A stretch of DNA of 64,000 bases from Thiohalobacter thiocyanaticus. GTDB taxonomy: Bacteria > Pseudomonadota > Gammaproteobacteria > Thiohalobacterales > Thiohalobacteraceae. The stretch lies in the NCBI RefSeq assembly GCF_002356355.1, contig NZ_AP018052.1, positions 744,001-808,000 of the forward strand, in the 5' to 3' direction. The notes beneath the pieces were generated by a model that was not told where the DNA came from, ran no database searches, and saw only the letters and a list, made by a program, of their open reading frames with translations. Positions 2,193-58,628 of this stretch are shown here, one piece after another; position 1 is the first letter of the stretch; each line of letters begins with the position of its first letter. The translations under genes and the position numbers were made by a program.

Positions 2193-3608
2193 ATGTCAGT
2201 TAAAGCCTATGACGCGGGTGTAAAAGAATACCGCGACATGTACTGGACGCCGGACTATGTGCCGCTGGATACCGACCTGCTGGCCTGTTTCAAGTGTACC
2301 GGCCAGCCGGGCGTGCCGCGCGAAGAGGTGGCCGCCGCCGTGGCCGCTGAATCCTCCACGGGTACCTGGAGTACCGTGTGGTCCGAACTTCTGACCGACC
2401 TGGAGTACTACAAGGGCCGCGCCTATCGCATCGAGGACGTGCCCGGTGACTCCGAGTCCTTCTATGCCTTCATTGCCTACCCGATCGACCTGTTCGAGGA
2501 AGGTTCCGTCACCAACGTGCTGACCTCGCTGGTGGGCAACGTGTTCGGCTTCAAGGCGCTCAAGCACCTGCGTCTGGAAGATATCCGTTTCCCCATCGCC
2601 TACATCAAGACCTGCGGCGGCCCGCCGGCCGGTATCCAGGTCGAGCGCGATCGCCTGAACAAGTACGGCCGTCCGCTGCTGGGCTGCACCATCAAGCCCA
2701 AGCTGGGCCTGTCCGCCAAGAACTACGGCCGTGCCGTGTACGAATGCCTGCGCGGCGGCCTGGACCTGACCAAGGACGACGAGAACGTCAACTCCCAGCC
2801 CTTCATGCGCTGGCGCGACCGCTTCGAGTTCGTCGCCGAGGCCATCCAGAAGGCCGAGCTGGAGACCGGCGAGCGCAAGGGTCACTATCTGAACGTCACC
2901 GCCCCGGATCCGGAGCAGATGTACGAGCGCGCCGAGTTCGCCAAGGAGGTCGGCTGCCCGATCATCATGCACGACTTCCTGACCAGCGGCTTCACCGCCA
3001 ATACCGGCCTGGCCAACTGGTGCCGCAAGAACGGCATGCTGCTGCACATCCACCGTGCCATGCACGCCGTCATCGACCGCCATCCCAAGCACGGTATCCA
3101 CTTCCGCGTGCTGGCCAAGTGCCTGCGCCTGTCCGGCGGCGATCACCTGCACACCGGTACCGTGGTCGGCAAGCTGGAAGGCGACCGCGCCTCCACCCTG
3201 GGCTTCGTCGATCAGCTGCGCGAATCCTTCGTGCCGGAAGACCGCTCCCGCGGTGTGTTCTTCGATCAGGACTGGGGCTCCATGCCGGGTGTGTTCGCCG
3301 TTGCCTCCGGCGGTATCCACGTCTGGCACATGCCGGCGCTGGTGACCATCTTCGGTGACGATTCCTGCCTGCAGTTCGGTGGTGGTACTCAGGGTCACCC
3401 GTGGGGCAACGCCGCCGGTGCGGCTGCCAACCGCGTCGCGCTGGAAGCCTCCGTCAAGGCCCGCAACGAGGGTCGCGAGATCGAGAAGGAAGCCCGCGAC
3501 ATCCTGACCGAGGCTGCCAAGAACAGCCCCGAACTGGCCATCGCGATGGAGACCTGGAAGGAAATCAAGTTCGAGTTCGAGACCGTGGACAAGCTGGACG
3601 TGGGCTGA
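2193..3608 (+). CDS. cbbL: RubisCO large subunit, form IA (carboxysomal)
   Basis: CbbL fixes CO2 onto ribulose-1,5-bisphosphate inside the carboxysome as part of the L8S8 enzyme. The 471-residue length is normal for form I. The active-site segment [11 protein letters not shown] carries the lysine that is carbamylated. [10 protein letters not shown] holds the catalytic Lys before it, and the HIHRAMH and [11 protein letters not shown] segments are intact. It is the first gene of the carboxysome operon, with AGGAG before ATG 2193. The adjacent csoS2 marks it as the alpha-carboxysome (IA) type. CbbR, encoded about 10 kb downstream, is the likely regulator. Confidence 0.98.
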
Positions 3609-3660
3609 AGCCCCGTCCTGACCCGACTCGCAACCGACCACAAGCTACGAGGAATCAATC

Positions 3661-4005
3661 ATGGCAAGCACGTATGAAATGGGTGACTTCCAGACCGCCC
3701 AGACCCTGGAAACCTTCGGCTTCCTGCCGCCGCTGACCCAGGACGAGATTCAGGATCAGATCGCCTACATCATCGCCCAGGGCTGGACGCCGGCCATCGA
3801 GCACGAGCATCCGTCCAAGGCCGCCAACCACTACTGGACCATGTGGAAGCTGCCGATGTTCGGCGAGTCCAATCTCGACGTCGTCCTGCGTGAGCTGGAG
3901 GCGTGCCATCGGGCCTATCCCGACCACCACGTGAAGCTGCTGGGTTACGACAACTACACCCAGAGCCAGGGTTCGGCCTTCGTGGTCTTCGAGGGCCGCG
4001 GCTGA
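3661..4005 (+). CDS. cbbS: RubisCO small subunit, form IA
   Basis: CbbS caps the octameric RubisCO large-subunit core. It is 114 residues, normal for form IA. The protein begins [12 protein letters not shown] and contains the family segments [14 protein letters not shown] and [12 protein letters not shown]. It lies 52 bp after cbbL and 55 bp before csoS2 on the same strand, which is the standard alpha-carboxysome order. A GAGGAA motif precedes the start by 8 bases. Confidence 0.98.
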
Positions 4006-4060
4006 GCGGCAAGGCAACGCGGCTGAACGCGCACTAGCGACGACGCAACGGGGTTCCATC

Positions 4061-6382: not shown

Positions 6383-6423
6383 ACGCAAACAGGTAACGGA
6401 CAGGTAACGGAGACGCAACCGGC

Positions 6424-7950
6424 ATGTTGAATCGCACCCGCAACTCGCACACAGCGCGCCCGGCCCAGCCGGTCGCTGCCCCCCGGCGGCGGCCGGGGGC
6501 GCGGGTGGTGCCCCCGACGGCGCCGGGCGCGCCGCGGGTCGGCGGCGGCGTGCATGCGCTGGTGCGCGGCGACGACAATGCCCGGCTGTTCGACTACGAA
6601 CAACGCGTGAAGGCCGCCTTCGACGCCATCGTGCCGGCCCTGCGCAGGGTTTCGGCCCTGCAGCACGAAGAGGATTTCGAGCGCCAGGCCCAGGCCATCG
6701 CCCGCGAACGGCTCGGCTTCGAACTGCCGGCCTGGATCCTGGCCGACGCCTGGGTGGACCAACTCGATATGCGCCGGCTGTATGCCTGGTGCGTGTTCGA
6801 GACCTACCTGCGGTTTTCGGACGACTTCTTCAGCGCCGACCCGCTGGGCTGGGCTGACGAGGGCGAGTTCCAGGCCTTTCTGCAGGAGTGCGGATTCCAC
6901 ATCCTGGATATATCGCCCTGCGCCGACGGCCGCCTGGCGCACGTGATCCGTTACGTGCTGCGCCTGCCCTACCGCACGGTGCGGCGCAAGTCCTACGCCG
7001 GCGCGCTGTTCGACATCGAGGACAGCCTGGAGAAGTGGGGCGAGACCGAGTTGCTGCGCTTTCGCGAGGGCACGCCGAATACGGCCGATGCACCGACCCG
7101 CTACCTCAAGGCGGTGGTGTATCACTACAGCTCCAGCGCCCCCGACACCGAGGGCTGCGCGGCCCACGGTTCGGATGCGGTACGTGCCGCCGAGGCCGGA
7201 CGCGAGCGCCTGCTGGCCTTTCAGCAGGCGGTGGAGAACAGCTACTGCTGCGGGGCGTCCATCGACCTGCTGCTGATCGGGCTGGATACCGACACCGATG
7301 CCATCCGGCTGCACCTGCCGTCCGCCGAGGGCGGCATCGAGCCCGGGGCCTGGGTGGACGCCGCGCAGCTCTATGACGAGACCCGTGGCCTGCACGCCCG
7401 GGATGCCGGCGAGCGCATCGACGCCCGGCTGCGCGAAGCCGCCCCGGAGGCGCCGAGCGGCATGCTGCGGCTGCTGGCGCGGCTGCTGGAGAACAATCTG
7501 TCGCAGATCGAGTACGTGCAGCGTCATCATGGCGGGCGCTACCCGGATATCGGCCATGCCGAGCGTTTCATCGGCGCCGGCAAGGGCTTTGAGGAAGTTC
7601 AGCTGCGCAACCTCACTTATTTCGCCTACCTCGACACGGTCGAGGAGGCCGCACCCGACCTGGACGTGGGCGTGAAGATCTTCAGCCGGCTCAATGTCGG
7701 ACACGGCCTGCCCATCCCGGTGGTGGTGCGTTTCGACTACCACGGCAAGGTGCCCGCGGCGCGTGAACGCGCGGTGGAGCACTGCCGGCGGGTGGCCGGC
7801 GCCCTGGCGGCGCGCTACCCCGCACTGGCCGCGGACGGTCTGCTGCACACACTGCAACTGGTGCGGGATATCGATCACGAGCAGGGCGTCGGCGGCCGGG
7901 TCGAGGTACTGGATTGCAGCGTGCGGGAACCGGCACAGGAGGCGCACTGA
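6424..7950 (+). CDS. csoSCA: Carboxysome shell carbonic anhydrase
   Basis: CsoSCA (CsoS3) converts bicarbonate to CO2 next to RubisCO. At 508 residues it matches the family length. The zinc site by spacing is C166, H234 (in VVYHYSS) and C245 (in TEGC). D168 and R170, in the CADGR motif, form the Asp-Arg dyad. The AVENSYCCGASIDLLLIG segment is typical. It lies 41 bp after csoS2 and its stop directly abuts the csoS4A start, so translation of the two is probably coupled. Confidence 0.96.
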   Translation: MLNRTRNSHTARPAQPVAAPRRRPGARVVPPTAPGAPRVGGGVHALVRGDDNARLFDYEQRVKAAFDAIVPALRRVSALQHEEDFERQAQAIARERLGFELPAWILADAWVDQLDMRRLYAWCVFETYLRFSDDFFSADPLGWADEGEFQAFLQECGFHILDISPCADGRLAHVIRYVLRLPYRTVRRKSYAGALFDIEDSLEKWGETELLRFREGTPNTADAPTRYLKAVVYHYSSSAPDTEGCAAHGSDAVRAAEAGRERLLAFQQAVENSYCCGASIDLLLIGLDTDTDAIRLHLPSAEGGIEPGAWVDAAQLYDETRGLHARDAGERIDARLREAAPEAPSGMLRLLARLLENNLSQIEYVQRHHGGRYPDIGHAERFIGAGKGFEEVQLRNLTYFAYLDTVEEAAPDLDVGVKIFSRLNVGHGLPIPVVVRFDYHGKVPAARERAVEHCRRVAGALAARYPALAADGLLHTLQLVRDIDHEQGVGGRVEVLDCSVREPAQEAH

Positions 7951-8232
7951 ATGAAGATCTGTCAGGTGGAACGCCCACTGGTGGCGACCAACCGCATCCC
8001 CGGTATGGAGCACAAGCACCTGCAGGTGGTGCGCGACGGCAGTGCGCTGGCGGTGGCGGTGGATGCAGTCGGCTGCATCCCCGGCGACTGGGTGATCTGC
8101 GTGGGCAGTTCGGCGGCCCGCGAGGCCGCCGGCAGCAAGGAATACCCGAGTGATCTGACCATCGTCGGCATCATCGACCGCTGGCCGCCCGAGGAGGATC
8201 AGGCGCCGGAATCGGAACGGGGCCGGGGCTGA
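7951..8232 (+). CDS. csoS4A: Carboxysome vertex protein CsoS4A
   Basis: This is a BMV-fold pentamer that closes the vertices of the carboxysome shell. It has 93 residues, with the family core CQVERPLVATNRIPGMEH, GCIPGDWVICVGSSAAR and a LTIVGIIDRW strand. The last 15 residues are a polar acidic extension. Its start follows the csoSCA stop without a gap. Its TGA overlaps the csoS4B ATG (TGATG at 8230-8234). Confidence 0.95.
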   Translation: MKICQVERPLVATNRIPGMEHKHLQVVRDGSALAVAVDAVGCIPGDWVICVGSSAAREAAGSKEYPSDLTIVGIIDRWPPEEDQAPESERGRG

Positions 8233-8486
8233 TGGAGATCTTCCAGGTCGAGGCCCCGCTGGTCTGCACCCGCCGCGTGGACGGGCTCAAGCAGATCAGT
8301 CTGCGGGTGCTGCGCAGCGCGGCCGGCAAGCGCCAGGTGGCGGTCGACCCGGTCGGGGCCCGCACCGGCAACTGGGTATTCACGGTCAGCGGATCGGCGG
8401 CCCGCTATGCGGCAGGGGATTTCGGTGTACACACCGACCTGACCATCGGCGGCATCATCGATCACTGGGAACAGGCGACGGACTAA
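8232..8486 (+). CDS. csoS4B: Carboxysome vertex protein CsoS4B
   Basis: This is the second pentameric vertex protein, paralogous to CsoS4A (84 residues). It shows the matching segments VEAPLVCTRRV, GARTGNWVFTVSGSAARYA and LTIGGIIDHW. It is translationally coupled to csoS4A through a TGATG overlap. A 60-bp gap follows before the first csoS1. Confidence 0.95.
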   Translation: MEIFQVEAPLVCTRRVDGLKQISLRVLRSAAGKRQVAVDPVGARTGNWVFTVSGSAARYAAGDFGVHTDLTIGGIIDHWEQATD

Positions 8487-8546
8487 CCGCGTCGGAAATT
8501 GAAGCAAACGATTTGAAGCAACGACGAGCGAGCAGGAGAGACAGAG

Positions 8547-8846
8547 ATGGCAAATGACAATTACGGCATCGCACTGGGCATGATCGAAACCCGCGGGCTG
8601 GTGCCCGCCATCGAGGCGGCGGACGCCATGACCAAGGCCTCTGAGGTCCGGCTGATCGGCCGAGACTTTGTCGGCGGCGGTTATGTCACCGTACTGGTGC
8701 GCGGTGAGACCGGCGCGGTCAACGCGGCGGTGCGTGCCGGTGCCGATGCCTGCGAGCGCGTGGGTGACGGTCTGGTTGCGGCGCACATCATTGCGCGTCC
8801 GCACCGCGAGGTCGAGCCGGTTCTGGGCTCGAGCCAGGCCAACTGA
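8547..8846 (+). CDS. csoS1: Carboxysome shell hexamer CsoS1 (copy 1)
   Basis: This single-BMC-domain protein of 99 residues forms the hexameric shell facets. It starts MANDNYGIALGMIETRG and has a complete BMC fold through HIIARPHREVEPVL. AGGAG precedes the start. Compared with copies 2 and 3 it differs mainly in a few core residues (KASEVRLIGRDF rather than KAAEVRLIGREF) and the C-terminal tail (GSSQAN). The three copies cannot be matched to csoS1A, B or C by sequence alone. Confidence 0.95.
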   Translation: MANDNYGIALGMIETRGLVPAIEAADAMTKASEVRLIGRDFVGGGYVTVLVRGETGAVNAAVRAGADACERVGDGLVAAHIIARPHREVEPVLGSSQAN

Positions 8847-8880
8847 TTACTTGATCAATCCTTACAACGGAGACACGAAG

Positions 8881-9195
8881 ATGGCAACTGAGAACTACGG
8901 TATTGCTCTGGGCATGATCGAAACCCGCGGGCTGGTGCCCGCCATCGAGGCGGCGGACGCCATGACCAAGGCGGCGGAAGTGCGGCTGATCGGCCGTGAG
9001 TTCGTCGGCGGCGGCTACGTCACCGTGCTGGTGCGCGGCGAGACCGGCGCGGTCAACGCGGCGGTGCGTGCCGGTGCCGATGCCTGCGAGCGCGTGGGTG
9101 ACGGTCTGGTTGCGGCGCACATCATTGCCCGTCCGCACCGCGAGGTCGAGCCGGTGCTGCCGACCGGCGGTGACAAGCCTGCGAGCGCAGCCTGA
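8881..9195 (+). CDS. csoS1: Carboxysome shell hexamer CsoS1 (copy 2)
   Basis: This is a 104-residue BMC shell protein, nearly identical to its neighbours through the BMC core. The start is ATG 8881 (MATENYGIALG) behind GGAGA. The open frame upstream of it has no homology. The tail (PTGGDKPASAA) is unique to this copy. Nucleotide identity between copies is very high across the core, which suggests recent duplication or gene conversion. Confidence 0.95.
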   Translation: MATENYGIALGMIETRGLVPAIEAADAMTKAAEVRLIGREFVGGGYVTVLVRGETGAVNAAVRAGADACERVGDGLVAAHIIARPHREVEPVLPTGGDKPASAA

Positions 9196-19788: not shown

Positions 19789-20088
19789 TCAGGCGACCCG
19801 GCTGACTGCGGTGCGGTTCGCCGTGGTCGGATCGATCATCGTCACCACTTCGGTGATGCGGTTGGCGGGGAAGCCGCTGAGGCGGGCGTGCTCGCGGATC
19901 ACCTCCTCATTTTCGGCCAGATAAATGCAATAGGTCCTGTCCGCGGTGACGTAGGAATGCACCCACTGGATGCGGGTGCCCAACCTGGCCAGGGCGGTAT
20001 TGGATGTCCCGGCGACGGTGCAGAAGCCTTCGGCGCTGTTGCTGCCGATCCCGGGTACCTCGCGTTCGATGACGTATTTGCGCAGCAT
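19789..20088 (-). CDS. DUF4242 protein
   Basis: This 99-residue ferredoxin-fold protein belongs to DUF4242, the family of the nickel-binding SCO4226. It shows MLRKYVIEREVPGIGS, WVHSYVTADRTYCIYLAENEE and FPANRITEVVTMIDP. The start at 20088 has GAGGA upstream; the longer frame to 20205 has no family similarity. Function is not established. It stands alone, convergent with yajD. Confidence 0.85.
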   Translation of the reverse strand: MLRKYVIEREVPGIGSNSAEGFCTVAGTSNTALARLGTRIQWVHSYVTADRTYCIYLAENEEVIREHARLSGFPANRITEVVTMIDPTTANRTAVSRVA

Positions 20089-20237
20089 ATCGGTGTCCTC
20101 ACTGGTGGCCTGACGCCAGGAAGACCGGATGCCGGGCCAGGCCTTCCGGCATCCGCAACCACTCTGGCGCAGGGGTGTAACAGGTTGATTGCCCCGATGC
20201 TGCAAACTGTTTCGGGATTGTTGTTGCAGGATACGGT

Positions 20238-22118
<1,881 letters not shown>

Positions 22119-22178
22119 GGTGCAAGGATGTCGGTCAGAGTCAAACCGTTATTGTAACCGACGCGGACCGTTCGCGGC

Positions 22179-22862
22179 CTACCGGGATGTGGCTGGTTCC
22201 GCCTCAGCCGCCTGTGTCAGCGGTCGGCGCAGCCGGTCGAACTCCCGCGGCGGGACATACTGCAGAACCTCCTTGCCGTCGCGGTCCAGGATCAGATCCA
22301 GGCCGAGCTCAGGGTAGAGCAGGTGCTCGACCTGCGCGTTGATCTGAATGCGCTCGGACGGGACCCCGAAGCGGTGCTCGGCCACCTCGACATCGATGTC
22401 GGCGGCGGGGATGAAGGTGATCGAGGCGATGGTCGCCGCATGGGCGGTGGGCAGATCGGCGGGGTCCAGGCTGAAGCGGCGGGCGCCGCTGTCCAGTACC
22501 CTGCTGCTGACGGCGCGTTCGCGCAGTTCCCGCAGGGTCGCGCTGTCCAGCCGGGTGCCGAGGATCAGCCGGCCCGACAGCATCCCGGCCATGAACCGGC
22601 TGTAGAACAGTTCCAGCGCCCCGGCCTCGCCCGGGTCGGCGATGATGGCCAGTTCCGCGTCGCGGCCGTGCTGCTGCAGGGCGTCGCCGAAGCTGCTCTC
22701 GCCCAGGGTCAGTCCGAACACCCGGCTCATGCCCTCGGGCGTGGTCTCGACCTGCCAGGGCAGGCCGGTCACCGGCTCGCGCGGGGACTGGCCGTCGCGC
22801 AGCAGCGGGACCAGGACCAGGACGAGCAGCAGCAGGATCAGCAGCGGTAGCAGGCGTTTCAT
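22179..22862 (-). CDS. Membrane-anchored hypothetical protein
   Basis: This 227-residue protein starts MKRLLPLLILLLLVLVLV, one N-terminal signal anchor, followed by a soluble periplasmic part. I do not recognise the family. The mature part is about half charged and polar, without cysteines or repeats (GLPWQVETTPEGMSRVFGL, then SLDPADLPTAHAATIASITF). It lies 60 bp upstream of uup on the same strand, so co-transcription is possible. The start is taken at the Lys-Arg before the hydrophobic run. Confidence 0.7.
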   Translation of the reverse strand: MKRLLPLLILLLLVLVLVPLLRDGQSPREPVTGLPWQVETTPEGMSRVFGLTLGESSFGDALQQHGRDAELAIIADPGEAGALELFYSRFMAGMLSGRLILGTRLDSATLRELRERAVSSRVLDSGARRFSLDPADLPTAHAATIASITFIPAADIDVEVAEHRFGVPSERIQINAQVEHLLYPELGLDLILDRDGKEVLQYVPPREFDRLRRPLTQAAEAEPATSR

Positions 22863-23060
22863 GGGCGATGACCAACAGGTTGAACAGGATGCCGGGAGGG
22901 CCCGGCGCAATGCTGTCACAGGCCGGGGCCTGTTGACAGACCCTAGCATACCCGGCCCGGCTGGCGGCACCCGGCCGCGGCCGGCGCCCGGCGCGCCAGC
23001 GAAACCGCCTATAATAGGTTACAGTAATCGCTTTATGTCGAAACAATCCGGGGGGAGAGC

Positions 23061-23957
23061 ATGCTGGATGCCGTGACTGACTGGTTCAGGCAGAACTGGA
23101 ACGAGGAAAGCAATATCGGCAAGGCCAAGATCGCCGCCGTGGTGGTGCTGGTGTTTCTGTTCGTTGCCAGCCTGATGCCGGAGACCCGCGACGAGGAGAC
23201 GACGCAACAGGCCGCAGGTCCGGAGACCGGAGAGGTGGAACCGACCCTGGAGCAGGCCGAGAAGCAGGCCGCCGAGACCTACGCCAGCTATGAAAGCTAC
23301 CTGGCCGAACTGGCACGGGAGAAGGCGCAGGGGGAACAGCAGGCGCGCGCGACCTATGACAGCTATGAGCAGCGGGTCCGCGAACTGGAGCAGGAAAAGG
23401 AAGAGGCTGCCATCCAGGCCAGGGCCGCCTATCAGGACTACGAGGACCGCGTCGGTGAACTGGAGCACGAGCTCGAGGCCGCCCAGGCACAGAGTCAACA
23501 GGCCTATGTGGCCTACGAAAGACGCGTCGCCGAACTGGAGCAGGGACGCGAGGATCACGTCGCGGGCAGTGCCGCCCTGACCGGGCTTGAGGCCGCTGCG
23601 GCCGAGGCGCGCGAGACCTATGAACAGTATCAGGCCCGGGTAAGCGATCTGGAGCATGAACTCGAGGCCGCCGAGCACCAGGCCCGGGATGCCTATGCCA
23701 GCTACGAGGCGCGGGTCGCGGAACTGGAACGGGCGCAGGCGCAGGGCGAACGCGAGGCCGCCGAGACCTATGCCAGCTACGAGGCCCGGGTGGCGGAGTT
23801 GGAGCGCGAGAACGAGGCCCTGCGGCAGCAGCTGAACGAGTTGCGGCAGCGACAGTCGGGTCAGGCCGAGGCGGGGGACCCGGACAGCCGGGCGGCCATG
23901 CGGGAGGAACTCAAGGCCCTGCAGCAGCGTATCGATCGGCTGCTGCAGGATTTGTGA
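23061..23957 (+). CDS. Single-pass membrane protein with 25-residue coiled-coil repeats
   Basis: This 298-residue protein has one transmembrane segment (about 24-40, IAAVVVLVFLFVASL) and a long charged domain. The domain carries at least six repeats of about 25 residues with the consensus A-x-x-YASYEARVAELE. Five lie in register, with a degenerate linker after the fourth. The repeat fits a nearly straight coiled coil (25 residues in 7 turns). A further Leu-rich coiled coil ends the protein. No family is recognised. It may be a periplasmic spacer or a scaffold. It stands alone, with GGGGGAGAG before the start and a terminator after it. Confidence 0.75.
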   Translation: MLDAVTDWFRQNWNEESNIGKAKIAAVVVLVFLFVASLMPETRDEETTQQAAGPETGEVEPTLEQAEKQAAETYASYESYLAELAREKAQGEQQARATYDSYEQRVRELEQEKEEAAIQARAAYQDYEDRVGELEHELEAAQAQSQQAYVAYERRVAELEQGREDHVAGSAALTGLEAAAAEARETYEQYQARVSDLEHELEAAEHQARDAYASYEARVAELERAQAQGEREAAETYASYEARVAELERENEALRQQLNELRQRQSGQAEAGDPDSRAAMREELKALQQRIDRLLQDL

Positions 23958-24007
23958 TTGGGGTAATGCTGCAGAGCAGCAGGCCCTGATTCATTGCCGT
24001 CCCCAAT

Positions 24008-24039
24008 GCGGCCCGGATTCTGTCCGGGCCGCTTTTTTT
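24008..24039 (+). terminator. Rho-independent terminator
   Basis: GCGGCCCGGA and TCCGGGCCGC form a 10-bp GC-rich stem with a 5-base loop, followed by seven T (24033-24039). It lies 50 bp after the coiled-coil protein gene. Confidence 0.92.
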
Positions 24040-24121
24040 GCCCGGCCGAATGGCCCGGATGTTGCTACTCCTGTATGCAGGGCGGCATCGAGGCTGCGGT
24101 TGAGATGGGGTAACTTGCTGT

Positions 24122-24628
24122 ATGAAAAAACGATTCTGGAAACGTCTGGGGCTTGGTGCGGCGGCATTCTGGCTGCTGGGACCCGCCATGGGTCAGGAAT
24201 TCGACGTCCGAATACCGATGCAGGAAAGATCGGCGGCGACCTTCTACGTCAGTGCTGAGATCGCAGGGCTCGGGGCATCCGACTTCCTGGTCGACACCGG
24301 CTCGGGCTACATGACCATCAACGAGGTGACCCTGGCCGCGCTGCAGGAAACCGGCCAGGCCGAATATCTCAAGGACCTGTCCGGTATTCTGGCCAACGGT
24401 GAGCGCATGCGGGTGCCGGTATATCGCATCGAGCGCCTGGCCATAGGCGGCCGCTGCGAACTGAGGGATGTCGAGGCGGCGGTGTTCCCGGGCAAGAGCC
24501 GGCAGATCCTGGGGTTGAGCGTACTGACGCGGACCGCGCCTTTCGTGTTCTCCACCGACCCGGCGGAACTGCACTTGAGTTGCGGGGAAGGCAGCCTGGC
24601 GGCGGCCGGTGAGGCGCCGCCGGGCTGA
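24122..24628 (+). CDS. Retropepsin-like aspartic protease, secreted
   Basis: This 168-residue protein has a signal peptide (MKKRFWKRLGLGAAAFWLLG, cut near AMGQ). A clan AA aspartyl protease site follows: FLVDTGSGYMTI, with the hydrophobic-hydrophobic-Gly end at ILGLSVL. It is a single-domain form, so it probably works as a homodimer. The substrate is unknown. There is no partner gene on its strand; the next gene is convergent. Confidence 0.8.
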   Translation: MKKRFWKRLGLGAAAFWLLGPAMGQEFDVRIPMQERSAATFYVSAEIAGLGASDFLVDTGSGYMTINEVTLAALQETGQAEYLKDLSGILANGERMRVPVYRIERLAIGGRCELRDVEAAVFPGKSRQILGLSVLTRTAPFVFSTDPAELHLSCGEGSLAAAGEAPPG

Positions 24629-24640
24629 GGGTGGGACTTA

Positions 24641-24892
24641 TTACTGGTTCGTGTCCTGCTGCGGCTCCATTTCGAAGGCGCTGAATTCGGACTCGTCGAC
24701 CTGGTTGTTGCCGTCCTGGTCAACCGACTGCCACTGGCTGCTCAGGGCCTGGCTGGCCTGTGCCTCCTCGGCGGAGATGTAGCCGTCCTGGTTGGCGTCC
24801 AGCTGCTTGAACTTGCCGGCCTGTTCCCCGGCCATGGCGGAGCCGCTGGCAAAGGCGAATGCACAGGCGATGACAGTGATCTGCTTCTTCAT
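24641..24892 (-). CDS. Secreted EF-hand calcium-binding protein
   Basis: This 83-residue protein has a signal peptide (MKKQITVIACAFAFASGSAM). Two EF-hand loops are visible, DANQDGYISAEE and DQDGNNQVDESE, each with the Asp/Asn ligands and the final Glu. It is probably periplasmic. GGAGG precedes the start at 24892. The longer frame to 25060 adds only unrelated sequence. It is convergent with the protease gene, 12 bp apart. Confidence 0.85.
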   Translation of the reverse strand: MKKQITVIACAFAFASGSAMAGEQAGKFKQLDANQDGYISAEEAQASQALSSQWQSVDQDGNNQVDESEFSAFEMEPQQDTNQ

Positions 24893-25088
24893 GGGTATAC
24901 CTCCTGACGCTGTTTGTTGTTGATGGAACCACGAACGTTGTTCGTTCGTGGCGCCATGAAACGCCTGTTTCGATCCGACTGCCGTTAAGTGCATCACATT
25001 TCGCGAGGCGGGTCGGCTGCGGTCGCCGCGGTTCTGCCAGTGACCGGTTTCCGGTATCATAGGTATGACTCCCAGCCCGTGAATCCCT

Positions 25089-25922
25089 ATGAAATTTGCA
25101 GTTTTATCCGATGCTCACGGCAATCTGCCGGCGCTGACCGCGGTCCTCGACGACATCGAGCGCTGGGGCGCGGATCAGGTAATCGTCAACGGCGACCTGG
25201 TCAATCGCGGCCCCTGCAGCCTGGAATGCCTGCGACTGCTGCAGGCACGCTTTCCCGGCAGCCGCTGCATCAAGGGCAACCACGAGGCCTATGTGCTGGC
25301 CTGTGCCGATGACCCGCTCCCCGCAGACGATCCGACCCGGGAGTTGCGCCTGTTTGCCCACTGGACCTATCGCCAGCTCGGGGATGCCGTGGCCGATATC
25401 GCCGCCTGGGACGAACACTATGACCTGGATGCGCCGGTCGGCGCCTCCCTGCACATCACGCATGGCTCCCGGCTGGGCAACCGCGCCGGCATCTCGGCCA
25501 GTACGCCTGAAGACGAACTGGCCGAGAAGCTCGGCCCGGCGCGGGATCTGTTCGTCGGCTCTCATACTCACAAGCCGCTGATCAAGCGCTTCAACGGCAC
25601 CCTGGTGGTCAACACCGGCTCGGTCGGCCAGCCGCTGGACGGTGACGAGCGCGCCGCCTACGGGCGCTTCACCCTGGCGGACGGGCGCTGGCGGGCCGAG
25701 ATCGCCCGCGTGCCCTTCGACAAGGCGCGCGCCCTGCGCGACATGGACGAAAGCGGTTTTCTCGAGCAAGGCGGCGCCATCACCCGGCTGATCCGGCTGG
25801 AACTGGAACAGGCGCGGATGCATGTCGGGCCCTGGATGCGCGAATACCTGCCCCGGGTCAAGGCCGGAGAGATCAGCGTGGCCGCGGGTGTCGACTCCTA
25901 CCTGCGATCCACCAAGGTCTGA
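25089..25922 (+). CDS. Metallophosphoesterase
   Basis: This 277-residue calcineurin-like phosphoesterase has the metal motifs in order: DAHGN, NGDLVNRG, GNHE and GSHTH. MKFAVLSDAHGNLPAL opens the protein, which resembles YfcE/ApaH-related single-domain enzymes. The substrate cannot be told from sequence. The C-terminal 80 residues are helical and end in VDSYLRSTKV. A family E hairpin starts 16 bp after the stop. Confidence 0.88.
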   Translation: MKFAVLSDAHGNLPALTAVLDDIERWGADQVIVNGDLVNRGPCSLECLRLLQARFPGSRCIKGNHEAYVLACADDPLPADDPTRELRLFAHWTYRQLGDAVADIAAWDEHYDLDAPVGASLHITHGSRLGNRAGISASTPEDELAEKLGPARDLFVGSHTHKPLIKRFNGTLVVNTGSVGQPLDGDERAAYGRFTLADGRWRAEIARVPFDKARALRDMDESGFLEQGGAITRLIRLELEQARMHVGPWMREYLPRVKAGEISVAAGVDSYLRSTKV

Positions 25923-25937
25923 CGCCGGACCTGAATC

Positions 25938-26013
25938 CAGTGCCGGGCGGGCAGGGCTTTCGGGCGCATGTGCGCAGCACGCTAAGCCCGAAAGCCCTGC
26001 CCGCCCGGCGCTG
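25938..26013. repeat. Family E hairpin, copy 1 (variable arms, conserved loop)
   Basis: The arms 25942-25965 and 25986-26009 are perfectly complementary over 24 bp and extend a few more with one T-G pair. The loop holds GCGCATGTGCGC and CACGCTAAGCCC, shared with the copies at 28282-28363, 38074-38149 and 51939-52022. This copy lacks four loop bases. Arm sequence differs from the other copies. A TTTCGTGGATTTCGTGGCG fragment of family F follows at about 26057-26080. Confidence 0.9.
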
Positions 26014-26120
26014 GCCCGCCTCCGGTTCCGGTCTGGTCAATCAATATTATTCTGGTGGGTTTCGTGGATTTCGTGGCGCTTTAGCCCCTGCGTCGTGGGC
26101 AGACAACAACCCTGTTGTTT

Positions 26121-26160
26121 CGTAATCCAAATGTCATCAACCGGTAATCCAGGCGTCATA
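26121..26160 (+). promoter_or_regulatory. Tandem PhoB-box-like direct repeats
   Basis: Four half-sites lie exactly 11 bp apart: CGTAAT (26121), TGTCAT (26132), GGTAAT (26143) and CGTCAT (26154). Seen as pairs, GTAATCCAAATGTCAT repeats as GTAATCCAGGCGTCAT 22 bp later. PhoB sites consist of TGTCAT-type half-sites with 11-bp period. The block ends 63 bp before a phosphate-type porin gene, so phosphate-starvation control is likely. Confidence 0.75.
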
Positions 26161-26223
26161 CCCCCTCCCTACACTGCGCCCCGTATTCCGATTCTTCCAT
26201 TCACCAGAAATACGGGGAAAGAC

Positions 26224-27360
26224 ATGCGCATGCAGAAGATTACCGCGGCAATGACCGCATTGATCGGCGGCACCCTGCTCGCCACCACGGCCACCGCCGG
26301 CGTCACCGTCTACCAGGAGGGCGACACCTATGTGAAGCTCGGCGGCCGCATCCAGCTGCAGTACAACTCGATCGATCCGGACAACGGCAGCAGCGAGGAC
26401 GAAGTCATCTTCCGTCGCTTCCGCCCCTACATCGAGGGCAGCGTGCATCCCGACTGGAAGGGCAAGTTCCAGTGGGACATGGGCAAGGCCTCGGGCGATA
26501 ACGAGATCGCGGTCAAGGATGCCTACATGCAGTACACCGGCATGGACAACATGAAGCTGACCCTGGGCAATGCCAAATTCCCCTTCTCGCGCGAGAACCT
26601 GACCTCGTCCAAGAAACAGCAGCTGGTCGAGCGCACCTTCGTCGGTGACCACAACTACGGCAGTCCGGACCGCACCGCAGGCATCCACCTGGCCGGCAAG
26701 AGCGGCGACGTGATCACCTGGGGCGCCTCCTTCGCTTCCTCCTCCATCGATCCCGACGAGGACAAGCTGGATTTCGACACCCCGATCAACAGCAACAGTG
26801 ATTTCAACGAAGGCTGGGTCTACGGCGCCCGCGTCGATTTCCATCCCTTCGGCATCCTCAAGTTCTCCCAGGGTGACTTCAAGGGCGAGACGAAGGCCAC
26901 CATCGGCATGGCGGCCTTCCAGTGGGAGAATGACAACGACAACAATACCAACCAGGCAGGCAAGCCCGATGTGGACAGCGTGACCGGTTTTGAGATCAGC
27001 GGCGCCTTGCGCGCGGCCGGGTTTTCCGTCGATGCCCAGTACAACCTGTTCGACGCCGACACCGTTGCCGGCGGCTACACCGGCGGCATTTTCCGCAACG
27101 GCAGCACCGACCTGGAGAACTGGGCGCTGGAAGGCGGCTACATGATCATGCCGGGCAAGCTGGAACTGGTGGCCGGCTACGAGTCCCAGGATGCCGACAA
27201 CTACGCCGACGAATGGACCCGGGCCTCGGTCGGTGCCAACTGGTTCGTGCACAAGCACGACCTGAAATTCCAGTTCACCTACCGCATGGGCGAGAATGTC
27301 GAGGGTGTGAACGGCAACGATCAGGACGAGATCTACCTGCAGGGCCAGTTCGTGTTCTAG
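26224..27360 (+). CDS. Phosphate-selective porin (OprO/OprP family)
   Basis: This outer-membrane trimeric porin has 378 residues with a signal peptide cut after ATTATAG. The family motifs are YVKLGGRIQLQY, FRRFRPYIEGSVHPDWKGKF and LTLGNAKFPFSREN. The C-terminus ends in phenylalanine (GQFVF), as needed for outer-membrane insertion. The start is ATG 26224 behind GGGGAAAG. The PhoB-like boxes upstream support phosphate or polyphosphate uptake. A terminator follows. Confidence 0.9.
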   Translation: MRMQKITAAMTALIGGTLLATTATAGVTVYQEGDTYVKLGGRIQLQYNSIDPDNGSSEDEVIFRRFRPYIEGSVHPDWKGKFQWDMGKASGDNEIAVKDAYMQYTGMDNMKLTLGNAKFPFSRENLTSSKKQQLVERTFVGDHNYGSPDRTAGIHLAGKSGDVITWGASFASSSIDPDEDKLDFDTPINSNSDFNEGWVYGARVDFHPFGILKFSQGDFKGETKATIGMAAFQWENDNDNNTNQAGKPDVDSVTGFEISGALRAAGFSVDAQYNLFDADTVAGGYTGGIFRNGSTDLENWALEGGYMIMPGKLELVAGYESQDADNYADEWTRASVGANWFVHKHDLKFQFTYRMGENVEGVNGNDQDEIYLQGQFVF

Positions 27361-27410
27361 ACCGGACGGAGGTTACTTCCCCCTTATCCTCCTTCATGCA
27401 GGGATGCCTG

Positions 27411-27435
27411 AGCCCCGCCTTGTGGCGGGGCTTTT
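27411..27435 (+). terminator. Rho-independent terminator after the porin gene
   Basis: AGCCCCGCC and GGCGGGGCT form a 9-bp stem with a TTGT-type loop, followed by TTTTCT. It lies 50 bp after the porin stop and just before the rsuA start. Confidence 0.85.
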
Positions 27436-27481
27436 CTGTGTGCCTGAGGCGGGCGGGCGCAGTGCGGCGTACAATAGCGCC

Positions 27482-28177
27482 ATGCGCCTGGACCGCTTTC
27501 TCAGCCAGAACACCGCCCTGACCCGTTCGCGTGCACGGCAGGCGATCCGCCGTGGCCGGGTGACGCTGGCGGGAGCCGAGGTGCGGGACCCGGCCGCGGC
27601 GGTTATGGGGGCGTCGGAGGTGTGTCTGGACGGCGCGCCGGTGCGTGTGCGCGGCCTGCGCTATTTCATGCTGTACAAACCGGTGGGCTGGGTCAGTGTC
27701 ACCCGGCACGACCGTCATCCGACCGTGCTGGACCTGCTCGGGGTGGAGCCGCGCGCAGGGCTGCACGCGGCCGGGCGGTTGGACCTCTCAGCATCCGGAA
27801 TGGTCCTGATTACGGATGACGGCGACTGGTCACACCGGCTGACCTCGCCGCGGCGCCACTGCCCCAAGCGTTATCGGGTCACCCTGGCCGAGCCCCTGAC
27901 CGAGGCCCAGACAGCGGCGCTGCGAACGGGCGTGATACTGCGAGGCGAGAGTGAGCCGACGCGGCCGGCCCGGCTCGAGATCCTGGATGCCACCACCATC
28001 CTGCTGACGCTGACCGAGGGGCGCTATCACCAGGTTAAACGCATGTGCGCTGCGGCGGGCAACCGGGTGGTGGCGCTGCATCGGGAGGCCATCGGACCGC
28101 TGGAACTGGACGCCGCGCTGGAACCCGGCCAATGGCGGCCCCTGACGGATGAGGAAGTCAGATGTGCCGTGACGTAG
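27482..28177 (+). CDS. rsuA: 16S rRNA pseudouridine synthase RsuA
   Basis: This 231-residue protein has an S4 RNA-binding domain (MRLDRFLSQNTALTRSRARQ) followed by a pseudouridine synthase domain. The catalytic Asp lies in AAGRLDLSASG. LLTLTEGRYHQVKRMCAAAGN is the RsuA/RluB family end motif. It modifies 16S rRNA in E. coli (position 516). RluB/E/F-type specificity cannot be fully excluded. Its TAG stop lies in the first bases of a family B repeat. Confidence 0.88.
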   Translation: MRLDRFLSQNTALTRSRARQAIRRGRVTLAGAEVRDPAAAVMGASEVCLDGAPVRVRGLRYFMLYKPVGWVSVTRHDRHPTVLDLLGVEPRAGLHAAGRLDLSASGMVLITDDGDWSHRLTSPRRHCPKRYRVTLAEPLTEAQTAALRTGVILRGESEPTRPARLEILDATTILLTLTEGRYHQVKRMCAAAGNRVVALHREAIGPLELDAALEPGQWRPLTDEEVRCAVT

Positions 28178-28260
28178 GATGGGTGAAGGCGTTGCGCGCC
28201 GCAACCCATCGGTCCGCTCCCGAAAAAAAGATGGGTTTCGCCCGGCTTCACCCATCCTAC
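28174..28260. repeat. Family B palindromic repeat supplying the rsuA stop
   Basis: GTAGGATGGGTGAAG and CTTCACCCATCCTAC form perfect 15-bp outer arms, with inner AACCCATC and GATGGGTT. Other copies are at 49729-49811, 57666-57751 and the tandem array at 58629-59148. The rsuA stop TAG (28175-28177) is inside the left arm. Confidence 0.9.
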
Positions 28261-28281
28261 GATACTCAACCCGCCAAACGA

Positions 28282-28363
28282 GTGCCTGCGGCCGGCCCCC
28301 TCTTGTGGGCGCATGTGCGCCGTTTGCACGCTAAGCCCGCAAGAGGGGGCCGGCCGCAGGCAC
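28282..28363. repeat. Family E hairpin, copy 2
   Basis: The arms 28282-28310 and 28335-28363 are complementary over 29 bp with one T-G pair. The 24-base loop matches the other copies except for one base. Arm sequence (GTGCCTGCGGCCGG start) is unlike copies 1, 3 and 4. Confidence 0.92.
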
Positions 28364-28448
28364 GGCGCTGGTTCAATCGACACCGGAACCGGAGTGCACA
28401 TCCGCCGCTGGCTTAACCGGGGGACGGGAACGCTGCGTTTGTTCCGGC

Positions 28449-28778
28449 CTACGAAGAGTTGTTCTGCAGCCGGTCCAGGAAGGCCCGGCGGGCCTGTTCC
28501 AGCCGTGCGTCCAGTTGTACGTCGTTGCCGCATTCGGCCAGCAGTTGCCGGCACTGAGCGTAGAAGGCGTCGAAGGCTGCCAGCACGGCGGCGGCCGGAA
28601 CTTCGCGGCGGGCAGGCGTGCCGGCAGTTTCGGGAGGGCAGGGCTCGACTGCGGCCGAGCGTTTGATCAGCTGCTGCCGGCCGCTGGTGGCATGCACGGC
28701 CAGCAGGGCATTGTGCTTGGTATAGAGCTCTCCCTCAAACCGGAACCGGTCTCCTATCCTGAGCTGGTGAAATCGCAT
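28449..28778 (-). CDS. Small hypothetical protein with SH3-like N-terminus
   Basis: This 109-residue cytosolic protein starts MRFHQLRIGDRFRFEGELYT, a short beta-rich domain seen at the start of other small bacterial proteins. It is followed by a helical half (AFYAQCRQLLAECG). No function is known. It stands alone between repeats and the divergent diguanylate cyclase gene. Confidence 0.7.
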   Translation of the reverse strand: MRFHQLRIGDRFRFEGELYTKHNALLAVHATSGRQQLIKRSAAVEPCPPETAGTPARREVPAAAVLAAFDAFYAQCRQLLAECGNDVQLDARLEQARRAFLDRLQNNSS

Positions 28779-35664: not shown

Positions 35665-38016
35665 ATGAGAGTCGTTCATATGAATGAGTACGAACGCAGC
35701 CGCAGGGGATTGGATCAGCGCAGAGCGAACGAACTGCTGCGCGCCTGCCGCGAACAGGCGAAGCAGCATCTGTGTGCTGCCGTTGGCAGAATGCTGGACA
35801 AGGTCGACGACGCCCTGTTCGAGTTGGCCGAAAAGGCCGAGAACAATGCGGTCCAGAGCCAGTATTTCGATGCCATGCGGGAAGTCCGGATCAAGCGTAG
35901 TGACATGGAGCGGATTTTCCAGTCCACCCTGATCGACGGCTTCAATACCGCCGTTGCCCCGGCGCCCGCCGGCAGCGCCGCCGGCCGGGAGGGGGATGAG
36001 TTGGAACTCGACCTGGTGGGCGACGACGAAATGGAGGAGAACCTCGCCGTCACCAACATGGTCCAGAAGATCGAAACCGGCTGCACCCAGGAGTTGGGGA
36101 TGCTGGATCGGCGCATAGGCTATCTTCTGGCCGACGAAGCGCTGGAGGGCCACGCCAACCCGGTCGGGCCGCGGGTGCTGTGCAACGCCTTTCTGCAGGC
36201 CTGCAGCCCGGTCGAGTCCGGCCTCAAGGTCAAGCTGATCATCCTCAAGCTCTACGACCGCTATGTGGTCAGCGAGGATGTCCTGCCGCTGTACAAGACG
36301 CTCAACCGCTTCCTGGTCAGCCAGGACGTGCTTCCCGACCTGCGCTCCCGGGTGCCTTCGAAATCACGCACTGCGACGGCGGGCGGCACGGCTGCCGGCG
36401 CTGACTCGCAGGCGCCGGCCGGGGAGGATGAGCAGGATCAGGGTCCCGACCTGTTCGCCGCGCTGCAGCAGCTGGCGCCGGCGGGCGGCTACGGGGCGCC
36501 TGGCGGCGTCGGTGGTGCAGGTGGTGTAGGTGGTGTAGGTGGTGTAGGTGGTGTAGGTGGCGGCTTCGGGATCGGTGGCACGGTTCCGGCCGGCTTTCTG
36601 CAGGGGCTGACCCTGCTGCAGCAGGGTACGGGCGGCTATGCCGGCCTCGATGCCCGGGCCCTGGGCGGCGGCAGCGTCAATGTGATTCATGACGTCAAGG
36701 CCGCAGCGCTGGCTGAGGGCGTGGGCGGGCTGGACGCACTGATCATCGACGTGGTGTCCATGCTGTTCGACTACATCCTGGATGACCGCGATATCCCCGA
36801 TCCCATGAAGGCGTTGATCGGTCGACTGCAGATCCCCATGCTCAAGATCGCCATGCAGGATCAGGCCTTCTTCAATCGCAAGAGTCATCCGGCCAGGCGC
36901 CTGCTCAATGCGCTGGCCGAGGCCGCCGCGGGCTGGAATCCGGATGATCGTGACAGCACCCTTTACCAGACGGTCGAATCCATTGTGCAGCGGGTGCAGA
37001 CGGAGTTCGATGATGATGTCGCGCTGTTCGAGGAACTGCTGGAGGAGTTGGAGGCCTTCATGGCCGAGGAGGCCGAACGGGCGAGCGAGCAGGAGGCCGC
37101 CTCGACCGGCCTGCTGCGCAGCAAGGAGCAGCTGCATTATGCCAAGCAGTACGTGGAAGAGGAGATCGCGCACCGCACCCGCAACCTGAGCCTGCCCGCC
37201 TTCATCCGCAGCTTCATGGTCAATTACTGGAAGAATTATCTGCTGGTCATGCTGGTCAGGGAAGGCGACGGCAGCCTGGAGTGGAAGCGTGCGCTGACGG
37301 TGACCGACAACCTGCTGTGGAGCATACGGCCCAAGCTTGCCAGCGAGCGCGACCGTCTGGTGCGTATGCTGCCCGGGCTGCTGGAGAGCCTGCGCGAGGG
37401 TATGGAACTGGTGGCGATGAGCGATGACAGCTATCAGGCCTTCCTCTCCCAGCTGGGCGATCTGCATGCGCAGGTGGTTCAGCAGGCACGGGCCGATGCC
37501 GGTGCCGAAGCCGGGGAACAGGCGTTGTCCACGGCCGACCCGCTTGCCGCCGATCCGCTGGCGGAGGATATCGACGACGTCGATGAACAGGTGGACGAAC
37601 TGGCTGACGCCATGGATGCCGAGGCCCACGCGGCTGCCCACGCGACCCTGCACCGGCTGCTGGACGAGCAGGGGCTGGGTGAACTGGATGTCGAGGAGAT
37701 CATCCTCGACGAGTCCGGGGACGAGCACGAGGTCATGGAGGACGAGTTCACCGAGATGGCCCGCTCTCTGCAGCAGGGCGGCTGGGTGGAATTCGTCAGG
37801 GAATCCGGTGAAACGGTGCGCGCCAAGCTGACCTGGATCAGCCCGGTGACCGGCAGCTATCTGTTTACCAACCGCAAGGGACTCAAGGAGGCCGACATGA
37901 CCCTGCAGGGGCTGGCCGCCGAATTCCGCCGTGGCAGCGCCCGACCGATCGACGCCGTGCCGTTGTTCGACCGTGCCGTCAGCCACATGCTCGACGGGCT
38001 GCAGCAGGCGGGGTGA
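35665..38016 (+). CDS. DUF1631 family protein
   Basis: This large cytosolic protein of 783 residues belongs to DUF1631. The N-terminal helical part (LLRACREQAKQHLCAAVGRM) resembles the family start. A Gly-Val rich linker (about 283-300, encoded by 9-bp tandem repeats) follows, and then the main domain (KALIGRLQIPMLKIAMQD, NYWKNYLLVMLV). The C-terminus has a PilZ-like stretch, LTWISPVTGSYLFTNRKGLK. Its function is unknown in general; c-di-GMP or regulatory roles have been suggested for family members with PilZ-like ends. Confidence 0.8.
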   Translation: MRVVHMNEYERSRRGLDQRRANELLRACREQAKQHLCAAVGRMLDKVDDALFELAEKAENNAVQSQYFDAMREVRIKRSDMERIFQSTLIDGFNTAVAPAPAGSAAGREGDELELDLVGDDEMEENLAVTNMVQKIETGCTQELGMLDRRIGYLLADEALEGHANPVGPRVLCNAFLQACSPVESGLKVKLIILKLYDRYVVSEDVLPLYKTLNRFLVSQDVLPDLRSRVPSKSRTATAGGTAAGADSQAPAGEDEQDQGPDLFAALQQLAPAGGYGAPGGVGGAGGVGGVGGVGGVGGGFGIGGTVPAGFLQGLTLLQQGTGGYAGLDARALGGGSVNVIHDVKAAALAEGVGGLDALIIDVVSMLFDYILDDRDIPDPMKALIGRLQIPMLKIAMQDQAFFNRKSHPARRLLNALAEAAAGWNPDDRDSTLYQTVESIVQRVQTEFDDDVALFEELLEELEAFMAEEAERASEQEAASTGLLRSKEQLHYAKQYVEEEIAHRTRNLSLPAFIRSFMVNYWKNYLLVMLVREGDGSLEWKRALTVTDNLLWSIRPKLASERDRLVRMLPGLLESLREGMELVAMSDDSYQAFLSQLGDLHAQVVQQARADAGAEAGEQALSTADPLAADPLAEDIDDVDEQVDELADAMDAEAHAAAHATLHRLLDEQGLGELDVEEIILDESGDEHEVMEDEFTEMARSLQQGGWVEFVRESGETVRAKLTWISPVTGSYLFTNRKGLKEADMTLQGLAAEFRRGSARPIDAVPLFDRAVSHMLDGLQQAG
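36511..36560 (+). repeat. 9-bp coding minisatellite
   Basis: GGTGGTGCA and four copies of GGTGGTGTA run in frame at 36511-36555, then GGTGG. They encode Gly-Gly-Val steps in the linker of the DUF1631 protein. Copy number is likely to vary by slippage, and change by whole units keeps the frame. Confidence 0.9.
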
Positions 38017-58569: not shown

Positions 58570-58628
58570 GGGGGAATTCCTTGGGGACTGCCTGGATAGC
58601 TGATTCTAACGTATTGAGTGAGGAGTGC

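What the first reader, a model, noticed from the sequence alone, without database searches (positions are those of the whole stretch)
23061..23957. Membrane-anchored protein of 25-residue YASYEARVAELE repeats
At least six repeats of about 25 residues with consensus A-x-x-YASYEARVAELE form a predicted straight coiled coil behind one transmembrane helix. I know no named family with this unit.
Basis: seen in the sequence. Interest (0 to 1): 0.5.

Follow-up and report, generated by a model that had tools for sequence, protein, structure and literature searches.

The report
Membrane-anchored helical hairpin with 25-residue repeats
A sulfur-oxidising bacterium carries a small, so far unclassified membrane protein whose outer part is built from seven copies of the same 25-residue helical unit and probably folds back on itself as a long hairpin stalk; it is a real, conserved gene family of narrow range rather than a new kind of system.

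Summary
In detail: ORF 23061-23957 (+, 298 aa) has one N-terminal transmembrane helix and seven copies of a 25-residue unit with consensus YxxYExR[VI]xELE. Five of six unit intervals are exactly 25 residues, one is 38. Third-codon-position excess, purifying selection and homologues show a real gene. The 'straight coiled coil' is not supported: AlphaFold2 gives two helices of about 100 residues (63-165, 171-267) with a turn at 166-170, an antiparallel hairpin; a homologue (43% identity) also gives a turn. The core period is about 3.57 residues (25/7), a shallow left-handed coil of 7+7+11 type. Topology inferred: N-in, repeats periplasmic. Homologues are few: 5 of 11 genomes of the order and 2 of 20 of another family; no curated family above cut-off, no phage or plasmid match. 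In two of these, from different families, the gene lies directly before a calcineurin-type metallophosphoesterase gene; all five bearers at least 90% complete have that gene within 7 kb. Best reading: an inner-membrane-anchored periplasmic stalk or scaffold with a conserved cytosolic docking tail. Function is inferred, not shown. Ordinary in kind, new as a family.

The parts
23061..23957 (+). coding sequence, 298 aa, membrane-anchored 25-residue-repeat protein
23061..23129 (+). residues 1-23, cytosolic N-terminal tail W-x4-W-N-E-E-S-N-x-G-K-A-K; with the TM the part shared most clearly across two bacterial families
   Evidence: cytosolic side inferred from 3-4 Lys/Arg before the helix against 0-1 after it in three homologues
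23130..23177 (+). residues 24-39, single transmembrane helix
   Evidence: sequence; AlphaFold2 helix 18-37
23178..23246 (+). residues 40-62, acidic, predicted disordered linker, fast evolving
   Evidence: pLDDT below 50 at 39-60; dN 0.15-0.40 at 41-70
23247..23555 (+). residues 63-165, predicted helix arm 1 with units 1-4
23268..23342 (+). repeat unit 1 (residues 70-94)
23343..23417 (+). repeat unit 2 (residues 95-119)
23418..23492 (+). repeat unit 3 (residues 120-144)
23493..23567 (+). repeat unit 4 (residues 145-169)
23556..23570 (+). residues 166-170 (VAGSA), predicted hairpin turn within the 38-residue interval
23571..23861 (+). residues 171-267, predicted helix arm 2 with units 5-7
23607..23681 (+). 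repeat unit 5 (residues 183-207)
23682..23756 (+). repeat unit 6 (residues 208-232)
23757..23831 (+). repeat unit 7 (residues 233-257)
23880..23951 (+). residues 274-297, short C-terminal helix, low confidence and weakly constrained
24008..24039 (+). intrinsic-terminator-like site 50 bases after the stop codon (11-pair stem, T run): gene is probably monocistronic here
   Evidence: sequence
25089..25922 (+). calcineurin-type metallophosphoesterase gene; its orthologue lies directly downstream of the repeat-protein gene in two other genomes

Best explanation
The gene encodes a single-pass inner-membrane protein. Its 23-residue N-terminal tail stays in the cytosol, and the rest sits in the periplasm. 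After a flexible acidic linker the chain forms two helices of about 100 residues that pack antiparallel as a hairpin about 15 nm long. Each arm is made of 25-residue units of 7+7+11 type: a hydrophobic cassette (Tyr, Tyr, Val/Ile, Leu) followed by an Ala/Gln/Glu-rich weak stretch. The hairpin most likely acts as a passive stalk or scaffold that pairs with further copies or an envelope partner, while the conserved cytosolic tail docks a cytosolic partner. The metallophosphoesterase encoded next to it in some relatives is the best candidate. Shown: gene, repeats, TM, conservation, narrow distribution in the samples searched, neighbourhood. Predicted: hairpin, topology. Inferred only: scaffold role, docking and partner.
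For: AlphaFold2 hairpin, helices 63-165 and 171-267, ten-residue block means of pLDDT 93-98 over residues 131-210. A homologue (G004, 43% identity) folded with 7 rows also gives a turn, at 121-124, inside its first 38-residue interval. A 38-residue interval occurs in 5 of 5 proteins of the order, the window's included; within the repeat region Pro occurs only in such intervals (G003 and G004). Core period 3.57 and 3.55. N-in by charge in 3 of 3 sequences counted. The tail plus TM is shared with the second family, E 5.5e-14 over 37 residues. dN/dS between G000 and G002 is about 0.13 for residues 1-40 and 0.07 for 71-165. Phosphoesterase gene 8 bp downstream in G003 and 27 bp in G317, about 0.6 kb in G004, 1.1 kb in the window, 6.7 kb in G002.
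Against: pTM is only 0.52 and 0.42 and the alignments hold 5 and 7 sequences; single-chain prediction can turn a long oligomeric coil into a hairpin. The homologue's second 38-residue interval, with Gly-Gly, is not a turn in its model. The window's own break has Gly (162, 169, 175) but no Pro, and Gly also occurs inside 25-residue intervals (91, 132, 229). The two-unit form (G317) has no 38-residue interval, so the hairpin is not universal. In the closest pair (G000-G001) residues 1-40 have too few changes to show selection (dN 0.022, dS 0.038). In the window a terminator-like site follows the gene. The phosphoesterase occurs without the repeat protein in 9 of 13 carrier genomes of the class sample and in G008 and G010 (85% and 79% complete); it was not found in G001 and G376, 78% and 80% complete. 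I found no functional data.
Confidence: 0.5

Rival explanations
1. An extended parallel dimer or trimer: one long rod of about 200 residues reaching across the periplasm towards the outer membrane, with a flexible joint at 166-186. It would work as a spacer between membranes or as a tether.
For: Strong coiled-coil periodicity in both arms with nearly the same period; only a short Gly-containing break without Pro separates the arms in the window protein; core matching between the arms does not single out the hairpin register.
Against: AlphaFold2 places the turn with high local confidence in the window protein and gives a turn again in a homologue. Two of the homologues carry Pro at the break.
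Confidence: 0.25
2. Accessory of an envelope process, functionally like the coiled-coil hairpins of EnvC or RipA (cell-wall hydrolase control) or of EmrA/HlyD adaptors, but reduced to the hairpin.
For: Fold matches include EmrA (Z 12.0, 182 aligned, 4.8 A), the FtsE/FtsX/EnvC complex and SteB-RipA; same N-in single-pass topology as EmrA/HlyD (recalled).
Against: These matches are tied with unrelated hairpins and below the Z of about 13 that long helices need. No LytM, NlpC, lipoyl or beta-barrel domain among the Pfam rows shown; no cell-wall hydrolase, FtsEX or efflux gene recognised among the nine window neighbours scanned, three of which had no hit above cut-off.
Confidence: 0.12
3. A neutral, lineage-restricted coiled-coil protein whose only constraint is helix formation; its place beside the phosphoesterase is retained synteny without functional link.
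For: Unit number varies from 2 to 7 and intervals from 25 to 38; patchy presence; thiC lies upstream in both G003 and G317, so the block may simply be an old gene order.
Against: Tail with TM and arm 1 are under purifying selection between G000 and G002; the second Tyr and the Leu are invariant in 20 of 20 units aligned (20 chosen of 31).
Confidence: 0.13

Closest known systems
Periplasmic adaptor proteins EmrA/HlyD (membrane fusion proteins)
   Same: N-in single-pass anchor and a long periplasmic antiparallel helical hairpin (anchor and location recalled; hairpin match EmrA 4tko Z 12.0)
   Different: No lipoyl or beta-barrel domain among the Pfam rows shown or in the all-helical model; no transporter gene recognised beside it; tandem 25-residue units
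SMC/Rad50 coiled-coil arms
   Same: Long antiparallel two-helix coiled coil; best Foldseek hit (B. subtilis Smc 5nnv, E 8.1e-3), best NCBIfam hit SMC_prok_B 26.2 bits
   Different: No ATPase head or hinge, membrane-anchored, far under the family cut-off of 567 bits
EnvC and RipA N-terminal coiled-coil hairpins
   Same: Extracytoplasmic coiled-coil hairpin (EnvC complex 8tzl, RipA 6ewy and 9hmx)
   Different: No peptidase domain found; no sequence match seen
Window's own metallophosphoesterase relatives 3rqz, 3qfm (candidate partner, not the same family)
   Same: Neighbouring gene, solved relatives E 9e-14 and 1.7e-9
   Different: Soluble-looking enzyme; listed only as the linked candidate partner

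Membership tests
Membrane fusion / periplasmic adaptor protein (EmrA/HlyD type) | lipoyl (biotinyl-like) and beta-barrel domains flanking the hairpin | tested here: not met
   No such Pfam hit up to E 1 among the 25 of 27 families shown; model contains helices only
Membrane fusion / periplasmic adaptor protein (EmrA/HlyD type) | N-terminal membrane anchor with long periplasmic helical hairpin | tested here: inconclusive
   TM and predicted hairpin present; location inferred from charges; fold match tied with unrelated hairpins
SMC / Rad50 ATPases | score above the family cut-off, with ATPase head | tested here: not met
   26.2 bits against 567.35; no ATPase domain among the Pfam rows shown
EnvC / RipA type hydrolase regulators | LytM or NlpC/P60 domain after the coiled coil | tested here: not met
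   Protein ends 31 residues after the predicted hairpin; no such hit among the Pfam rows shown
ZapB, DUF948, Fez1 and other weak Pfam coiled-coil hits | score above the Pfam gathering cut-off | tested here: not met
   All of the 25 hits shown (of 27) are below cut-off, best E 0.0011
Any PHROGs phage protein family | significant full-length match | tested here: not met
   Best of 10 hits up to E 0.1 is E 2.6e-4 over 31 residues; no match in phage or plasmid records, none confirmed in viral contigs
TolA-type envelope-spanning proteins | C-terminal globular TolA domain III and long helical domain II | tested here: inconclusive
   No TolA hit among the Pfam rows shown, no C-terminal globular domain in the model; homology of the helical part cannot be judged by sequence

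The most novel reading that the evidence does not exclude
A two-part transmembrane device in which a periplasmic Tyr-zipper hairpin, whose length is set by the number of 25-residue units, is coupled through its conserved cytosolic tail to a nucleotide- or phosphoprotein-cleaving metallophosphoesterase, so that envelope state controls the enzyme's place or activity.
Probability: 0.08. Interest if true: 0.65.

Novelty: new member of a known kind. Interest (0 to 1): 0.27.

Why it matters
It defines a small, unnamed protein family with an unusually regular 25-residue (7+7+11) coiled-coil unit and a conserved membrane-tail motif, and gives a testable candidate partner (a linked metallophosphoesterase). 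If the hairpin is real, unit number sets stalk length, a simple natural system for studying how coiled-coil length evolves by unit gain and loss. The general kind, membrane-anchored periplasmic coiled coils, is well known.

Tried and rejected
Known families: Pfam, NCBIfam and PHROGs give only generic coiled-coil hits, for Pfam and NCBIfam all those shown below cut-off; the 44-residue tail gives no Pfam hit up to E 0.1 in 5 of 5 sequences. PADLOC was not searched. PDB by sequence: 2 chains up to E 1 with the single protein, 15 up to E 1 with the profile, 12 up to E 5 with the unit profile, none convincing. Fold search: generic hairpins (chemoreceptors, SMC arms, dynein stalk, YscO, PI3K iSH2), no row well above the others. 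Rfam: nothing at gathering score in window 20000-28500.

Mobile-element origin: no match in phages or plasmids; in viral contigs 53 stretches matched a pattern and none was confirmed as a relative.

A second copy in the genome: the only other hit (G000:C1:2704195-2704434, 31% over 80 aa, E 0.0087) lies inside a frame (L002 553-2229 minus, 558 aa) that reads to me as an ABC-transporter permease; chance coil similarity. Weak tail hits in G364, G382 and G617 were dropped: in L030 and L032 the ORF lists (100 aa or more) show no repeat protein, and the G617 frame has a stop inside (its locus was not read). Isolated unit hits in 8 other genomes of the class sample and one elsewhere in G000 match 13-20 residues and occur once each; dropped as chance, their proteins not read.

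My first look for the repeat gene upstream of the phosphoesterase examined the wrong side for three loci with the enzyme on the minus strand (L023, L036, L037); one search repeated it on both strands of 16 phosphoesterase loci: the unit or tail motif is in 4 of 16 (L024, L025, L033, L034, i.e. G004, G003, G000, G317). L021 (G002) is negative because the gene lies 6.7 kb off.

Antiparallel register from core matching alone: the sum 336 is not a peak itself (peaks at 328, 335, 339, 346), so sequence alone neither supports nor excludes the hairpin register. The equal 29-residue intervals in both arms of the G003 protein looked like co-variation of the arms, but duplication of a 67-residue block (80 to 147 and 109 to 176) explains them as well.

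The divergent upstream gene (22179-22862 minus) was found only in the genus neighbourhoods (G001, G002) among those compared and has no Pfam, NCBIfam or PHROGs hit. Literature: six searches listed no paper that I recognised as being about this protein; 'Thiohalobacter' with 'coiled-coil' gave 0 papers. Of the papers listed I read only PMC7892661 (whole text); the others I saw only in search listings with abstract beginnings.

Full report
Observation. The ORF at 23061-23957 (+) encodes 298 residues. Residues 24-39 are the only long hydrophobic stretch that I see in it. Seven units follow, with the first Tyr of the YxxY motif at 74, 99, 124, 149, 187, 212 and 237; 5 of 6 intervals are 25 residues and one is 38. 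Self-similarity at lag 25 has z 11.3 against 300 shuffles of residues 58-265, and at lag 50 z 5.9; no other lag from 5 to 59 exceeded 3. Tandem Repeats Finder did not list the stretch, so the units are alike as protein more than as DNA.

Real gene. Against two congeners the changes fall at codon positions 1/2/3 as 10/15/34 (G001) and 30/46/106 (G002); dN/dS is 0.036/0.190 and 0.139/0.716. Between G000 and G002 the constraint is strongest in residues 1-40 (0.061/0.488) and in arm 1, 71-165 (0.073/1.068), weaker in arm 2 (0.131/0.721), and weak in the linker (0.297/0.871), the turn region (0.238/0.567) and the C-terminal part (0.306/0.348). The closer pair G000-G001 has too few changes in residues 1-40 (0.022/0.038) and 266-298 (0.070/0.042) to judge. 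A TATAAT box at 23010-23015 and a purine-rich stretch before the ATG can be read, but the promoter scan found no full promoter there. A terminator-like 11-pair stem with a T run follows the stop codon.

Unit anatomy. In the seven window units, positions 0 (Tyr), 3 (Tyr), 7 (Val or Leu) and 10 (Leu) are hydrophobic in 7 of 7; positions 11 to 20 are mostly polar or Ala. The core period is 3.57 residues in arm 1 and 3.55 in arm 2, with 0 of 500 shuffles as strong in each. Twenty-five residues in seven turns equals two heptads plus one hendecad, a shallow left-handed coil. So 'straight' is close for the coil's twist but not for the molecule.

Fold. AlphaFold2 on an alignment of 5 sequences, the window's included (mean pLDDT 79.4, pTM 0.52), gives helices 2-13, 18-37, 63-165, 171-267 and 274-297; ten-residue block means are 93-98 over residues 131-210, around the turn. 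With the G004 homologue (43% identity) as query and 7 rows (pLDDT 75.5, pTM 0.42) it gives helices 58-120 and 125-233, with the turn inside the first of its two 38-residue intervals; the second is not a turn. I therefore prefer an antiparallel hairpin, arms about 15 nm (103 and 97 residues at 0.15 nm, my arithmetic), to a single rod. Confidence in the hairpin is moderate: few sequences, no oligomer prediction, and register cannot be confirmed from core matching. Within the repeat region Pro occurs only in 38-residue intervals, in two proteins (G003, G004); the window's own break has Gly at 162, 169 and 175, but Gly also occurs at 91, 132 and 229 inside 25-residue intervals, so Gly is no proof of a turn. 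PDB matches are many generic helical hairpins at Z up to 12.2, none standing out.

Topology. Lys/Arg count before the helix is 3, 4 and 3, after it 1, 1 and 0, in three homologues: N-terminus inside, repeats in the periplasm. This is an inference from the positive-inside rule.

Distribution. In the order, 5 of 11 genomes have it (G000-G004, the window's own included). The window's single contig has 3,233,441 bases; the 3.23 Mb of Thiohalobacter sp. COW1 in the abstract of PMC7892661 fits, though that paper's text gives another length and a second strain of the same species exists, so the strain is not certain. With the 44-residue tail profile, 5 of 369 genomes of the class sample ring, of which 4 are real (G000, G003, G004, G317) and one (G364) was dropped. 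In the family of G317, 2 of 20 have it (G317, G376, where a third weak hit, G382, was dropped). In 398 genomes of the phylum sample only the window's own is real; G617 was dropped. The unit profile rings more than once only in G000, G003, G004 and G317 among 369 genomes. No match in phages or plasmids, none confirmed in viral contigs.

Variation. Unit counts are 7, 7, 7, 5 and 5 in the five proteins of the order and 2 in G317. Intervals are 25, 29, 35 and 38. The G317 protein has no 38-residue interval and so probably no repeat hairpin. The constant parts are the tail, the TM and the unit itself.

Neighbourhood. A calcineurin-type metallophosphoesterase (Pfam Metallophos_2, E 2.1e-17; PDB relatives 3rqz E 9e-14 and 3qfm E 1.7e-9) lies downstream on the same strand: 8 bp in G003, 27 bp in G317, about 0.6 kb in G004, 1.1 kb with two genes between in the window, 6.7 kb in G002. 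Thus 5 of 5 homologue-bearing genomes of at least 90% completeness (G000, G002, G003, G004, G317) have it within 7 kb; in the 2 less complete ones (G001, G376) it was not found. The G001 contig ends 5.2 kb after the gene, and the G376 contig ends 57 bases after it without a start of the enzyme. In the class sample the enzyme is in 13 of 369 genomes (E up to 1e-40), 4 of which have the repeat protein; 9 do not. G008 and G010 have the enzyme only. The link is thus suggestive: the repeat protein goes with the enzyme, not the reverse. thiC lies upstream in both G003 and G317, so shared old gene order is an alternative. Three of the four class-sample cases are of one family and are not independent.

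Mechanism. Most likely a stalk or scaffold in the periplasm, anchored in the inner membrane, with a cytosolic docking tail. The steps shown are gene, repeats, TM, constraint and neighbourhood; predicted are hairpin and topology; inferred are scaffold role and partner. Chance that the physical picture (N-in anchor plus periplasmic hairpin) is right: about 0.6; that the phosphoesterase is a functional partner: about 0.3 (my estimates).

Verdict. A genuine, unnamed, apparently lineage-restricted family with a very regular unit; ordinary in kind. Interest 0.27.

Noticed in passing
47061-48509 (+): Adenylate kinase (Pfam ADK E 1.5e-55, residues 5-189) whose frame runs on into a Lys/Ala-rich tail of about 200 residues (from about 281) matching histone H1-like HC2 (E 3.1e-11, residues 335-478, 44.2 bits over a cut-off of 40); an unusual-looking fusion.
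   Followed up: partly
2193-9195 (+): Carboxysome genes: RuBisCO large subunit, CsoS2, CsoSCA and a BMC shell protein; the stretch 8538-9159 holds 1.9 tandem copies of a 334-base unit at 92% match.
   Followed up: partly
58624-59207: Four tandem copies of a 146-base unit (GTAGGATGGGTGGAGCG...), 88% match; as a 292-base unit 97% match.
   Followed up: no
24641-24895 (-): Small EF-hand protein with a signal-like start, weakly lanmodulin-like (26.6 bits, cut-off 135), next to an aspartyl-protease (retropepsin-like) gene at 24122-24628.
   Followed up: no
L003:2449-3198 and L004:687-1433: In two congeners a gene that reads as an OmpR-type response regulator lies directly after the repeat-protein gene on the same strand (about 50-65 bp gap); tblastn at 1e-8 finds no match to it in the window.
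   Followed up: partly
22179-22862 (-): Divergent gene for a protein of 227 aa with a hydrophobic start and no Pfam, NCBIfam or PHROGs hit, found beside the repeat-protein gene also in G001 and G002.
   Followed up: partly
36511-36560: 5.6 tandem copies of a 9-base unit GGTGGTGTA.
   Followed up: no
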